A stretch of 29,130 nucleotides of DNA. It comes from a virus. Every line of letters begins with the position of its first letter. The stretch's first letter is position 1. The stretch lies in IMG/VR virus record IMGVR_UViG_3300046011_002949, positions 1 through 29,130 of that record. One strand, 5' to 3'. The notes beneath the pieces were generated by a model that was not told the DNA's origin, searched no databases, and saw only the letters and a program-made list of their open reading frames with translations. A program made the translations under genes and the position numbers. Shown piece by piece: positions 7,730 through 29,130 of the stretch.

Positions 7730-8754
7730 GCGATATAACAAAGAGAATTATAATTAAAAAAGGGTCAGGCATTGCAACTATTCCTGTAACATCAGACCAT
7801 AGGGATGGTACGTGGTTAAGCACTGATTTGTACATTGGTGAGTTCTATATGAACACTGCTAACGGTAAGATATACACACGTACAGCAAGTGGCATTGAAG
7901 AAATAATTTACGATGTAGCAGACTTTGAAGTGTTAGCAAATAAAGCTACAAATTTCACTACTATAAATAACACTAAATATCCAACGACTCAGGCGGTTGA
8001 AAACCAAATTGACGCTAAACTTGTAAGCACTGGCTATTGGAATGTTGCAAGTTCAGAAATTGCAAGGGGATATAGGGCGCAACACAATTCAACAACGGTG
8101 TTGTCTGAAAATATCGCGGTTGGCACTTTACAAGGTACAGCAACAGCAGTGGCAGTGTCAACAACTTCCATGCAAACGAAAAAGACACGTTTAAAAATTG
8201 GTGTTTCAACTCCCGCAGCTAACGGTATTTGCGGTTACAGGTCAACAAGTGCGTTTAATATTATAGACATGGGTTGGAGGTTTTGCGTTGGATTTGGTGT
8301 TTCAGATACAGCCTTAAATACAGGGGCGCGCCAATTCTATGGGATGACATCGGCAACAACTTTATTAGGGATTTCGTCTACTGTTCACGTTGAAAGTTTG
8401 ACTAACATAGTTGGTATTGGATCGGATGCTTTGGATACTAATTTGCAAATATTTCATAACGATGCAACAGGAACAGCTACCAAAATAGATTTAGGTTCTA
8501 ATTTTCATGCAAACAGAACAGGGAGTGCAGCAACTGATTTTTTTGTTTTTGAATTGTACAACCCATTTAATTCAATGACTGTTTATTACAAAGTTACTTC
8601 GTTGGAAAACAACGTAACAGTTGAGGGGTCAATAACTACGAATTTACCAAGTGATACTACACCGATAACTATGCAAGCGGTTAGAACTTCGGGAGCGACA
8701 TCAAACGCGTGTAGTTTTGATATTTCACAATTAACATTAAATTGTTTGTCATGA
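7726..8754 (+). CDS. Tail-fibre/receptor-binding-like protein
   Basis: The 342-residue protein has an N-terminal module with IGEFYMNTANGKIYTR (about 39-54), which looks like the lead-in of phage fibres. It continues with a short helical linker containing TTINNTKYPTTQAVENQI, a phrase typical of fibre stalks. The remaining 240 residues are a Ser/Thr/Ala-rich beta domain that could be a jelly-roll or lectin-like head. Start and stop overlap the neighbours by 4 bases. A receptor-binding or adhesion role is inferred from architecture; no enzymatic motif is visible. Confidence 0.65.
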   Translation: MSDITKRIIIKKGSGIATIPVTSDHRDGTWLSTDLYIGEFYMNTANGKIYTRTASGIEEIIYDVADFEVLANKATNFTTINNTKYPTTQAVENQIDAKLVSTGYWNVASSEIARGYRAQHNSTTVLSENIAVGTLQGTATAVAVSTTSMQTKKTRLKIGVSTPAANGICGYRSTSAFNIIDMGWRFCVGFGVSDTALNTGARQFYGMTSATTLLGISSTVHVESLTNIVGIGSDALDTNLQIFHNDATGTATKIDLGSNFHANRTGSAATDFFVFELYNPFNSMTVYYKVTSLENNVTVEGSITTNLPSDTTPITMQAVRTSGATSNACSFDISQLTLNCLS

Positions 8755-19739: not shown

Positions 19740-20300
19740 GTGATTCGTAAAAAAGTAAAAATTACATAAATAATTATTTCGGCTTTTATCCTTTCATTAT
19801 CAGTATTTTGAAACAAAAAATAAAATATCCAAGTTACATCGCCCTTAGTAGTAGTAGTAAAACATTTATTTTTTTTTCTGAAAAAAAGTTGACAAAGTGA
19901 CTTTTTGATTATAACACTCTAAACAACAATATTTTAACACTGAAAAAAACCGTCACTTTTTACTTTTTAAATATTTCTAATTTTACGACATCTCTACAAG
20001 TCTACACATCTCTACATACAACTCTACACTATAAACACCAATAAACACAAGGGTTAATAGAATTTTGTAGAGATGTTGAGGTAAAACAACAATCTTTTAT
20101 ATATAAAAAGGAATTGGAAAAATAAAAAAATATTAAAAAACACCTCCACATCTCTACAAAAACAATAAAACACAACAAACATAAGGCTTAAAGACTGTAG
20201 AGATAGCGTAGAGATAGTGTAGAGATGTGTAGAGATGTATAAAACATTATTTAGAATCGTTATAAATTAATATAAATAGAATATAATTAAAATTAATGTT
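19740..20300. other. Gene-free AT-rich region, candidate origin
   Basis: About 560 bases carry no convincing gene on either strand. The left part (19740-19980) is very AT-rich, with a TAG/AGT triplet run near 19857 and an 8-bp inverted repeat (AAAGTGAC at 19894, GTCACTTT at 19952). The right part (19988-20238) carries the short repeats listed separately, around an A/T-only-like core at about 20090-20140. The whole stretch lies directly before the HNH and SF3 helicase genes, where a phage origin is often found. Confidence 0.6.
19988..20238. repeat. Iteron-like cluster, unit TGTAGAGATGT
   Basis: The 11-base unit TGTAGAGATGT, allowing one or two changes, occurs in both orientations. Reverse copies (ACATCTCTACA) are at 19988, 20006 and 20148, with partial copies CTACA/CTCTACA at about 20000 and 20022. 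Forward copies are at 20066, 20196, 20207, 20218 and 20228. The last four are spaced 11, 11 and 10 bases, one turn of the helix, so a protein could line them on one DNA face. The left copies point one way and the right copies the other, with an AT-rich core between. This is how iterons at replication origins and some operator arrays are built. Confidence 0.7.
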
Positions 20301-20308
20301 TATATTTG
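20301..20308 (+). promoter_or_regulatory. Promoter -7 element before the HNH leader
   Basis: TATATTTG followed by CATA fits the Bacteroidota TAnnTTTG -7 element. The position 19 bases upstream holds no TTG, so the -33 side is weak or replaced by an activator, possibly one bound at the nearby repeats. A transcript would start near 20313, exactly at the first base of the structured leader. Confidence 0.5.
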
Positions 20309-20312
20309 CATA

Positions 20313-20410
20313 CCGAAGCGTGGAAACTTCATAAGACATTATTAAAAAAGCTATCTGATAAAGGTTTCCACGCACCTTTTGAAGATGGCTTTTTGCATTT
20401 AAAAAAAATT
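20313..20410 (+). ncRNA. Structured leader RNA with pseudoknot potential
   Basis: Two 12-bp helices can form. Helix 1 joins 20318-20329 with 20362-20373 (GCGTGGAAAC and GTTTCCACGC plus a G-U and an A-U pair). Helix 2 joins 20345-20356 with 20383-20394 (AAAAAGCTATCT and AGATGGCTTTTT, one G-U pair). The strands are interleaved 1-2-1-2, so the two helices form an H-type pseudoknot if both are present. Loops are about 15, 5 and 9 bases. The stretch is followed by an A-rich run and the ATG at 20411. It may be a riboswitch-like, ribozyme-like or protein-binding leader. The pairing is read by hand; no covariation is available. Confidence 0.5.
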
Positions 20411-20767
20411 ATGATAGGAAAAGAAGTATGGAAACCAATTAAAGATTATGAAGGTCTTTATGAGATAAGTTCTTACGGTAGAATTAAAGGATTTTATAAA
20501 AACGGTAAATTACAAGAAAGGATAATTAACCATCATATGAGCGGTGTCTTAAGAAGAAACTATCCTCAGATAAGTTTGTATAAAAAAGGAATAAAAAAAA
20601 CTTTAAGAGTTCATTCGTTAATGGCTTTATGTTTTTTAGATTATGTTAAAACAGATAGAAAAACTGTTATAGATCATATTGACAATAACCCTTTAAATAA
20701 TAACATTGATAACTTACAAATAGTATCAATGGCTTATAATAATATAAAAGAAAGAAAGAAATCATGA
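20411..20767 (+). CDS. NUMOD4/HNH endonuclease
   Basis: From the ATG at 20411 the protein has 118 residues. The N-terminus EVWKPIKDYEGLYEISSYGR (5-24) is a clear NUMOD4 motif. The HNH core follows, with RVHSLMALCFL (66-76), DHIDNNPLNNNI (88-99) and DNLQIVS (100-106). Such free-standing homing-type nucleases nick or cut DNA at specific sites and spread between phages. A TTG at 20306 would add 35 residues, but it lies inside the -7 element and the structured leader, so 20411 is chosen. The stop overlaps the SF3 helicase start (ATGA). Group I intron features were not found. Confidence 0.75.
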   Translation: MIGKEVWKPIKDYEGLYEISSYGRIKGFYKNGKLQERIINHHMSGVLRRNYPQISLYKKGIKKTLRVHSLMALCFLDYVKTDRKTVIDHIDNNPLNNNIDNLQIVSMAYNNIKERKKS

Positions 20768-22248
20768 ATAATATAAACCCAGAGGATAAATTTTGGTCAG
20801 TAAACCAAGACGGAAAAGTGTCTCTAAACAACTATAAATTTAAAAGGTTTTTAGAGATGAGAAATTTTTTTAAGAATAGACCTAATTCAAATAGTACGTT
20901 TAATCTTATAAAAGAAAATGGAATATTTTTAGAAATTATAGACGAAGTAGAAATTAAAGATTTTGTACTAAACTACATCTTAAAAGAACGATTGAGCGAG
21001 GACGTGTTTAATCTTATGACTGCAAATATAAAGTTCTTTAAAAGGGATTATTTGAGCATGATTGACAGTAAAGAAATAAAAGTTCTTAAAGACACAAAAG
21101 ATACTGCATATATTTTTTATGAAAACGGTGTGTTAGAAGTCAATAAAGATAAATCAGAGCTAAAGAAATATACAGATTTTAATCTAAATATTTGGGAGGA
21201 TCAAGTGATTAAGAGAAAGTATGTAGAATCAGACCATCACGATTCAGAGTTTAGAAAATTTATTTGGAAAATATCTGGAGGTATTGATATAAACGAAAAC
21301 TCATCGATAGAAGACAAAAACAAATACGATACTGCGGTTGCTAGATATAATTCTTTTCAAAGTGCGTTTGGGTATTTAATACATTCCTATAAAACATCTG
21401 GTAATAATAAAGCTGTGATTTTAAACGATGAGCTTATAAGTGACTCCCCTAACGGTCGGTCTGGAAAAGGAATTTGCTGCAATGCTTTAAAGCACATGAA
21501 GAAATTACAAACGATAGACGGTAAACAGTTTAAGTTTGGTGGCGACTTCCCTTATCAATCAGTAAAAACAGATTGTCAGATATTGGTTTTTGACGATGTT
21601 AAAAAGAATTTTCAGTTTGAAAACTTGTTTAGTGTTATTACAGAGGGCATTGATATAACTTACAAAGGAAAAGATACAATTAAGCTACCTATTGAAGACT
21701 CGCCTAAAATAGTTATATCTACAAACTACGTATTAAAAGGAAATGGAGATTCACACGATGCAAGAAAGTTTGAGTTAGAACTTTCCCCTTTTTTTAACGC
21801 TGACAATACACCTTATGAGTTTTTTGGTCATTATTTATTTACTGATTGGGATGAATTAGAGTGGGCGCGTTTCGATTGTTACATGATTGAATGTTTAAAG
21901 AAATATCTTAATAATGGATTGGTATCTTACAAGTCAATTTCTTTACCAATTAAAAAGTTGGAAGCTAATTTAGGCAAAGAGCTTTACGAATTTTGTTTAG
22001 ATTTGCCAAAAAATGAATGGTTATCTGGTCAAGAAACTTATGACAAATATAAGTTTAGTATTTCAAAATCATTTATGGCAAAATCAAAAAAAGAGGTAAC
22101 ACAATCTATAAAAAAGTTTTGTGATTTCTTTTGTTACGATTACGAATCAAGAACTCCTGGAGGAGCTTTAAAATTTATGATAACAGAAAGGTCTATTACA
22201 CATAAAGAAGTAACAGAAAGCGACCTTGATATTTGGGACACGATATGA
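20764..22248 (+). CDS. SF3 helicase, D5/DUF5906-like replication protein
   Basis: The 494-residue protein has Walker A SPNGRSGKGI (228-237), Walker B ILVFDDV (273-279) and a sensor-type VISTNYV (317-323), the order of superfamily 3 helicases. The N-terminal 150 residues include FWSVNQDGKVSLNNYKFKRF, a lead-in I associate with the DUF5906/D5-type primase-helicases of Bacteroidota phages; no catalytic primase motif is visible there. It should unwind DNA at the origin, and the candidate origin lies just upstream. It is followed by a small gene with ATGA overlap. Confidence 0.8.
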   Translation: MNNINPEDKFWSVNQDGKVSLNNYKFKRFLEMRNFFKNRPNSNSTFNLIKENGIFLEIIDEVEIKDFVLNYILKERLSEDVFNLMTANIKFFKRDYLSMIDSKEIKVLKDTKDTAYIFYENGVLEVNKDKSELKKYTDFNLNIWEDQVIKRKYVESDHHDSEFRKFIWKISGGIDINENSSIEDKNKYDTAVARYNSFQSAFGYLIHSYKTSGNNKAVILNDELISDSPNGRSGKGICCNALKHMKKLQTIDGKQFKFGGDFPYQSVKTDCQILVFDDVKKNFQFENLFSVITEGIDITYKGKDTIKLPIEDSPKIVISTNYVLKGNGDSHDARKFELELSPFFNADNTPYEFFGHYLFTDWDELEWARFDCYMIECLKKYLNNGLVSYKSISLPIKKLEANLGKELYEFCLDLPKNEWLSGQETYDKYKFSISKSFMAKSKKEVTQSIKKFCDFFCYDYESRTPGGALKFMITERSITHKEVTESDLDIWDTI

Positions 22249-28833: not shown

Positions 28834-28841
28834 TATATTTG
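28834..28841 (+). promoter_or_regulatory. Promoter -7 element before the sigma gene
   Basis: TATATTTG followed by CATA, the same 12 bases as at 20301-20312, matches the Bacteroidota TAnnTTTG -7 element. No TTG lies 19 bases upstream, so it is weak on the -33 side, like the one at 20301. The terminator downstream at 28862 lies only about 16 bases after the expected start, so most transcripts may be attenuated before the sigma gene. Confidence 0.5.
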
Positions 28842-28861
28842 CATAGCATATAATTAGTTTT

Positions 28862-28894
28862 AAACCCTTGCATCAATTGTTGTAAGGGTTTTTT
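28862..28894 (+). terminator. Intrinsic terminator before the sigma gene
   Basis: An 11-bp stem, AAACCCTTGCA and TGTAAGGGTTT with one G-T pair, has an 8-base loop and is followed by three more T residues. It ends the replication operon and stands between the -7 element at 28834 and the sigma-factor ATG at 28911. Confidence 0.75.
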
Positions 28895-28910
28895 CGTTAT
28901 CTTTAACCCC

Positions 28911-29130
28911 ATGAATTTAAAAGAGATTGCGCAGTATCACGACGAATGGGTAAGAATTGTTAAACGCTTTGGAGCCAAGACCGATGCTGAAGACATTGTA
29001 CAAGATATGTATCTAAGGTTTCACAAGTACGGCAAAGGTCAAGTAGTAACCAAGTCATTCATTTGGATCATGCTGCGTAACTCTTTTTACGATTCATGCA
29101 AGCGTAATGTTTCAACAGTAGACATCGACC
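28911..29130 (+). CDS. Sigma-70-family factor (N-terminal part, cut by the window)
   Basis: The 73 residues before the window edge include FGAKTDAEDIVQDMYLRFHK (20-39), the region 2.1 signature of sigma-70/ECF factors, and KSFIWIMLRNSFYDSCKR (48-65), which fits regions 2.3 to 2.4 that bind the -10 DNA. The ATG at 28911 follows a terminator. A phage-coded sigma factor would redirect host polymerase to late promoters, which would explain why host-type promoters are absent from the virion block. The C-terminal region 4 is outside the window. Confidence 0.75.
   Translation, partial: MNLKEIAQYHDEWVRIVKRFGAKTDAEDIVQDMYLRFHKYGKGQVVTKSFIWIMLRNSFYDSCKRNVSTVDID

What the first reader, a model, noticed from the sequence alone, without database searches (positions are those of the whole stretch)
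20313..20410. Pseudoknot-capable leader RNA starting at the transcription start
Two 12-bp helices interleave: 20318-20329 with 20362-20373 and 20345-20356 with 20383-20394. Each contains only one G-U pair. The expected start of the transcript from TATATTTG (20301) falls 5 bases before the first helix strand, so the transcript would open with this fold and end in an A-run before the HNH start codon. Helix 2 ends in a T-run, so it could also work as a terminator. It may be a riboswitch, ribozyme, protein-binding leader or packaging/replication RNA of a new kind.
Basis: seen in the sequence. Interest (0 to 1): 0.65.

Follow-up and report, generated by a model that had tools for sequence, protein, structure and literature searches.

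The report
Phage leader RNA with pseudoknotted terminator
Many phages of Flavobacterium-like bacteria start their DNA-replication operons with a previously undescribed RNA in which the loop of a terminator-like hairpin pairs back to the start of the transcript, which looks like a switch deciding whether the genes behind it are transcribed.

Summary
Both 12-bp helices exist at the stated places; none of 2,000 shuffles reached this. A covariance model built without the pseudoknot helix found dozens of relatives in Bacteroidota-type phage contigs and in two cultured phages, Flavobacterium phage 11b and Croceibacter phage P2559S. In 47 non-redundant members the pseudoknot helix is kept (median 8 bp) while its sequence changes: 0 of 20,000 partner-swap permutations reach the observed pairing. 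In a 12-sequence alignment, 6 of its 8 pairs show changes on both sides. Usually the 5' strand lies in a small hairpin loop, so it is a loop-loop ("kissing") pseudoknot. The second hairpin ends in a T-tract, and the first gene starts a median 17 nt later. That gene varies (HNH, helicase, primase, DnaD-like), and one copy precedes a tRNA. Some phages carry two to four copies, each pairing only with itself. The 35-codon ORF and a link to the HNH gene are rejected. Rfam has no match. Best reading: a promoter-proximal conditional terminator (attenuator) controlling phage operons. The structure and its placement are shown; the switching, its direction and its signal are inferred.

The parts
20301..20308 (+). 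-7 promoter box TATATTTG (Bacteroidota type); transcript expected to start a few bases downstream
   Evidence: same box at the same place in most relatives; start site inferred
20315..20330 (+). 5' hairpin A: stem 20315-20318 / 20327-20330, 8-nt loop
   Evidence: MFE fold; hairpin A stem score across members 10.5 vs 8.8 shuffled, 0/200 shuffles; missing in a few members
20318..20329 (+). helix 1 (pseudoknot / kissing helix), 5' strand
   Evidence: conserved by covariation
20331..20344 (+). A-rich linker (ATAAGACATTATTA; family consensus about AAAGAAATTATT)
   Evidence: alignments; used as a sequence-only probe
20345..20356 (+). helix 2 / hairpin B 5' strand
20360..20379 (+). inner stem of hairpin B (20360-20365 / 20374-20379) closing the loop that carries the helix 1 3' strand
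   Evidence: 2 of 5 modelled pairs change on both sides
20362..20373 (+). helix 1 (pseudoknot / kissing helix), 3' strand, in the loop of hairpin B
20383..20394 (+). helix 2 / hairpin B 3' strand ending in the T-tract (20390-20394): terminator-like
   Evidence: T-run of at least 4 after hairpin B in 44 of 47 members, not matched by A-runs before it (63 vs 16 of 76)
20411..20767 (+). first gene behind the leader here: NUMOD4/HNH_3 endonuclease (replaced by other genes in relatives)
20764..22248 (+). conserved replication gene, DUF5906-type, with Walker-A-like DSPNGRSGKG; directly behind the leader in several relatives
   Evidence: helicase role inferred
19988..20238 (.). repeated ACATCTCTACA / TGTAGAGATGT sites (both strands) upstream of the promoter; possible origin or activator sites
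   Evidence: similar repeats upstream in L001 and L004

Best explanation
It is the 5' leader RNA of a phage early/replication operon: a promoter-proximal conditional terminator. RNA polymerase starts just after TATATTTG and makes hairpin A, an A-rich linker, then hairpin B, which is an intrinsic terminator with its T-tract 4-48 nt (median 17) before the first gene. The loop of hairpin B pairs with the loop, or 5' end, of the leader. This pairing can form before the 3' arm of the terminator is transcribed, so it can set whether the terminator closes in time. The balance between the pseudoknot and the terminator would decide read-through into the operon. Shown: the structure, its conservation, the T-tract, the position and orientation, pairing in cis only, and independence from the identity of the downstream gene. 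Inferred: that hairpin B terminates, that the pseudoknot changes termination (I lean about 60:40 towards promoting read-through), and that a phage or host factor, possibly reading the conserved linker, sets the balance.
For: Interleaved helices beyond chance. Covariation: 6 of 8 helix-1 pairs change on both sides, 92.6% of cells paired, 0/500 shuffles for the whole structure; 47 non-redundant members score 20.2 against 11.9 for swapped partners, 0/20,000 permutations. Retrieval that did not use helix 1: CM R1, and a sequence-only pattern in which 45 of 58 hits with hairpin B also have helix 1 against 5% swapped. T-tract: 44/47 members against 10/47 control; not explained by pairing, 63 vs 16 of 76. 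First start codon a median 17 nt after hairpin B, 46/47 within 40 nt against 22% at random positions, which leaves no room for another promoter. One copy is followed directly by a tRNA, so the role is not purely translational. Several copies per phage at different operons, each pairing in cis (20.0 vs 11.3, P = 6e-13). Another promoter-proximal terminator precedes a sigma-factor-like gene in the same window.
Against: No transcript or termination data. Classical attenuators use mutually exclusive stems, whereas here helix 1 occupies only the loop of the terminator and both helices can coexist. No ligand, protein or antisense RNA has been identified. Some T-tracts are only 4 T long, so termination may be weak or merely a pause.
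Confidence: 0.48

Rival explanations
1. A put-like processive antiterminator: the folded leader binds RNA polymerase as it emerges and makes it resistant to later pauses and terminators, hairpin B being part of the binding fold or a pause site.
For: Same place (immediately behind early promoters), similar size (70-110 nt), two stem-loops, several copies per phage, first genes variable, one copy before a tRNA. HK022 putRNA is a ~70-nt two-stem-loop RNA of this kind with a minor-groove triplex (PMC9378689); the A-rich linker could play a comparable role.
Against: putRNA has no loop-loop helix and no T-tract reported in the passages read; the strong T-tract here suggests a terminator. No sequence or Rfam link to put was found.
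Confidence: 0.2
2. A 5' mRNA stabiliser or translation aid: the compact pseudoknot protects the 5' end of phage mRNA from decay or keeps the start-codon region open.
For: It starts at the transcript's 5' end and ends a median 17 nt before the start codon.
Against: Does not explain the asymmetric T-tract; one copy precedes a tRNA rather than a reading frame.
Confidence: 0.17
3. A stand-alone small RNA of about 95 nt ended by its own terminator; the downstream genes are expressed by leak-through.
For: Own promoter and terminator, strong fold.
Against: Fixed short spacing to a start codon in 46/47 members; loop sequences differ between members, so no common target is evident, and they pair only in cis.
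Confidence: 0.1
4. A riboswitch, ribozyme, or packaging/replication RNA.
For: Pseudoknots occur in all of these; repeats resembling iterons lie upstream of the promoter.
Against: No conserved core beyond an A-rich linker, no Rfam match, several copies per phage at different operons.
Confidence: 0.05

Closest known systems
HK022 put RNAs (putL, putR), lambdoid phage antiterminator RNAs
   Same: cis RNA downstream of early phage promoters, ~70 nt against 70-110 nt, two stem-loops, more than one copy per phage, no protein known (PMC9378689)
   Different: no reported loop-loop helix; here a T-tract terminator hairpin ends right before the first gene; different hosts; no sequence relation found
pT181-type antisense attenuators of plasmid rep genes
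   Same: leader with a 5' hairpin and an intrinsic terminator before a replication gene, kissing loops involved (PMC4878617; the rep-gene context is own knowledge)
   Different: in pT181 the kissing partner is a separate antisense RNA and an anti-terminator competes for the terminator stem; here the pairing is inside one RNA and uses the terminator loop; no antisense promoter was noticed
lambda nut / boxB-N antitermination leaders (own knowledge)
   Same: RNA signal at the start of phage operons controlling read-through
   Different: nut sites are small hairpins bound by N and Nus factors with conserved sequence; no N-like partner identified here
H-type pseudoknot transcriptional riboswitches such as preQ1-I and fluoride (own knowledge)
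   Same: pseudoknot close to a terminator in a short leader
   Different: those have a strongly conserved ligand-binding core; the helices here vary freely in sequence

Membership tests
Any Rfam 15 family | score above the gathering threshold | tested here: not met
   window and 19 related loci: no match at the element; permissive scans of the window element and the phage 11b copy gave only sub-threshold hits
HK022 put RNA | cis position just behind an early phage promoter | tested here: met
   promoter box about 5 to 35 nt upstream of the fold in members; that the promoter is early is inferred
HK022 put RNA | two stem-loops of the put fold with related sequence | tested here: inconclusive
   two stem-loops present, but they kiss and show no evident sequence relation; put sequences were not aligned here
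HK022 put RNA | suppresses distant terminators and binds the RNA polymerase beta' zinc-binding domain | not testable with these tools
   needs transcription assays
Intrinsic-terminator attenuator | stable hairpin followed by a T-tract between promoter and first gene | tested here: met
   hairpin B median -18.8 kcal/mol; T-run of at least 4 in 63 of 76; start codon median 17 nt downstream
Intrinsic-terminator attenuator | alternative structure that prevents the terminator stem | tested here: inconclusive
   helix 1 competes only for the terminator loop, not for the stem
pT181-type antisense attenuator | antisense RNA encoded opposite the leader | tested here: inconclusive
   no minus-strand TANNTTTG box close downstream in the window; relatives not checked systematically
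Protein-coding 5' extension of the HNH gene | frame from TTG 20306 conserved | tested here: not met
   in-frame stops in L009, L014, L025, L002, L013, L047

The most novel reading that the evidence does not exclude
A new class of phage leader RNA in which an intrinsic terminator is gated through its own loop: pairing between the terminator loop and the transcript's 5' end controls termination or modifies RNA polymerase, used repeatedly across operons of Bacteroidota phages.
Probability: 0.4. Interest if true: 0.85.

Novelty: new variant of a known kind. Interest (0 to 1): 0.72.

Why it matters
How phages of Bacteroidota time their genes is poorly known; I found no described cis RNA for this in the searches made. 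This family gives a concrete, testable element present in cultured phages. If the loop-gated terminator works as proposed, it would be a simple way to control transcription with RNA, with freely exchangeable pairing sequences, useful for gene-control tools in Bacteroidota. It also lets phage operon starts be annotated from sequence alone.

Tried and rejected
Reading the first 35 codons as protein: rejected, stops in relatives. RNA tied to the HNH homing gene: rejected; the same leader stands before different HNH genes or no HNH (L009 vs L026, L013 vs L012, L025, L040), and relatives of this HNH occur without it (L002, L003, L005). Known Rfam RNA: none. Trans pairing between copies of one phage: not supported. 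Correlation of linker length with hairpin length: none. Bacterial genomes: in 299 Flavobacteriaceae genomes only one hit, on a small phage-like contig, though only 12 candidates per genome were scored; the three host-genome hits inspected were ordinary terminators. Nonlabens phage P12024S: no significant match. Literature searches found no description of such an RNA; one search failed on syntax.

Full report
OBSERVATION. In 2,000 dinucleotide shuffles of the region, two interleaved helices of at least 10 bp appeared once and of at least 12 bp never; no other place in the 29-kb window reaches 12. The nested fold alone is 3 standard deviations below shuffles. The fold adds two features: a 4-bp hairpin around the first helix strand (20315-20318/20327-20330) and an inner stem in the second hairpin (20360-20365/20374-20379). 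The usual form is therefore two hairpins whose loops pair.

WHERE IT IS. The window is a virus record of 29,130 bases with portal, methyltransferases, Erf, Gam, SSB and helicase genes. The portal is 35% identical to that of Nonlabens phages P12024S/L, so the host is probably in Flavobacteriia (inference). The leader sits after a ~600-nt intergenic stretch with repeated ACATCTCTACA sites and before an HNH gene (NUMOD4 + HNH_3). A gene of the DUF5906/phrog_28855 type with a Walker-A-like motif follows; I take it as the replicative helicase/primase, an inference.

FIRST RELATIVES. The HNH protein found five close loci (a sixth is distant). L001 carries the same leader with two compensating changes in helix 1 (GCGTGG/CCACGC to GCGTGAG/CTCACGC), and L004 carries a leader of the same plan with quite different helices. 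L002, L003 and L005 have the HNH gene without the leader in front, although each carries a copy elsewhere in the locus. Searching with the downstream replication gene (53 loci) and the next helicase (80 loci) gave the material for comparison. A script found the promoter-pseudoknot-T-run plan in 18 distinct sequences.

UNBIASED TESTS. Covariance model R1 was built with hairpin B only, leaving out helix 1 and hairpin A. Its further hits nearly all contained a loop-to-5' complementarity of 6-11 bp; four weak hits (L029:1389, L051, L077, L103:4865) are false. After reduction to below 80% identity, 47 members with a parsed hairpin B have a helix-1 score of 20.2 on average (median 8 bp, 42 of 47 with at least 7 bp), against 11.9 when loops are exchanged between members; 0 of 20,000 permutations reach the observed mean. 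Some of these 47 were first found by the pseudoknot itself, so the independent support is the CM-only hits and the pattern test below. On a 12-sequence alignment, 6 of 8 helix-1 pairs and 7 of 12 hairpin-B pairs have changes on both sides; the whole-structure covariation score is 0.403 against 0.153 in shuffles (0/500), and sliding the partners drops pairing from 91% to 62% or less. Of these, 58 had a T-run hairpin, and 45 of the 58 also had helix 1, against 5% with exchanged loops; 43 of the 45 had a start codon within 40 nt. Most of the remaining 63 places look like chance matches inside genes. The hairpin A stem is weaker but above shuffles (10.5 vs 8.8, 0/200) and is missing in a few members, which are plain H-type pseudoknots.

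POSITION AND NEIGHBOURS. The first start codon lies a median 17 nt behind hairpin B (range 4-48, 46 of 47 within 40 nt, 22% expected at random positions). The T-tract is asymmetric: T-runs of at least 4 after the stem in 63 of 76, A-runs before it in 16 of 76 (hairpin detection asked for a T-rich tail, so the absolute number leans upward, but only one of 48 CM members failed the detection). Downstream genes differ: HNH, GIY-YIG, DUF5906, DnaD-like, VirE-type primase, ResIII helicase, short lipoproteins (several of these labels are my reading of the sequences). The same leader stands before different HNH genes in close relatives (L009 vs L026, L013 vs L012). One copy (L126:8216-8306) is followed directly by a tRNA (Rfam match 8303-8406). 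Several phages carry two to four copies at different operons. In 15 such loci each copy pairs with itself (mean 20.0) and not with its sister copies (11.3, P = 6e-13).

DISTRIBUTION. Copies occur in cultured Flavobacterium phage 11b (NC_006356, 33621-33732, in the gap before gp62) and Croceibacter phage P2559S (NC_018276, 33901-34002), where they are not annotated. P12024S shows none. Of 299 Flavobacteriaceae genomes, one small contig had a copy (L196), so the element looks phage-specific, with the caveat that that search scored few candidates per genome.

CODING READING REJECTED. The frame from TTG 20306 contains stops in L009, L014, L025, L002, L013 and L047.

MECHANISM. Three facts must be explained together: helix 1 is conserved in pairing but not in sequence, hairpin B ends in a T-tract, and a gene starts at once behind it with no room for another promoter. 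A conditional terminator explains all three. During transcription the loop strand of hairpin B appears before its 3' arm, so helix 1 can form first and influence whether the terminator closes. The direction is not known; since the genes behind must be expressed, I lean towards read-through in the pseudoknot state, at about 60:40. The conserved A-rich linker is a candidate protein site or groove-binding strand. The closest functional relative is HK022 putRNA (PMC9378689); pT181 attenuation (PMC4878617) shares kissing loops and a terminator but uses an antisense RNA.

SHOWN AND INFERRED. Shown: structure, covariation, position, multiplicity, pairing in cis, independence from the downstream gene, absence from Rfam. 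Inferred: the transcription start, termination at hairpin B, regulation, direction and signal.

Noticed in passing
window 28834-29130: A second promoter-proximal terminator: TATATTTG at 28834, hairpin 28862-28891 with T-run, then ATG 28911 of a truncated protein matching Sigma-70 region 2 (PF04542, E 1e-6). No kissing partner seen. P12024S also encodes a Sigma-70 region 2 protein.
   Followed up: partly
window 19988-20238: At least six ACATCTCTACA / TGTAGAGATGT sites on both strands in the intergenic region before the leader; other relatives have different repeats (ACTTTTTAC type) at the same place. Possible replication origin or activator sites.
   Followed up: partly
L126 8303-8406: A tRNA that ARAGORN misses but Rfam finds, directly behind a copy of the leader.
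   Followed up: yes
L126 8128-8207: TATATTTG followed by a simple strong terminator hairpin and T-run just upstream of the full leader copy: a short promoter-terminator unit.
   Followed up: no
hairpin B of many members, e.g. window 20357-20359 / 20380-20382: Recurrent internal loop GAU/UGA (possible tandem G-A pairs) between the outer and inner stems of hairpin B.
   Followed up: no
L016 2487-2810, L017 2454-2990, L022 1844-2128: An ORF can be read starting inside the leader (MNNKVGCVRINRGFLFKQIIMKK...), although an in-frame ATG behind hairpin B followed by a signal-peptide-like sequence is the likelier start.
   Followed up: no
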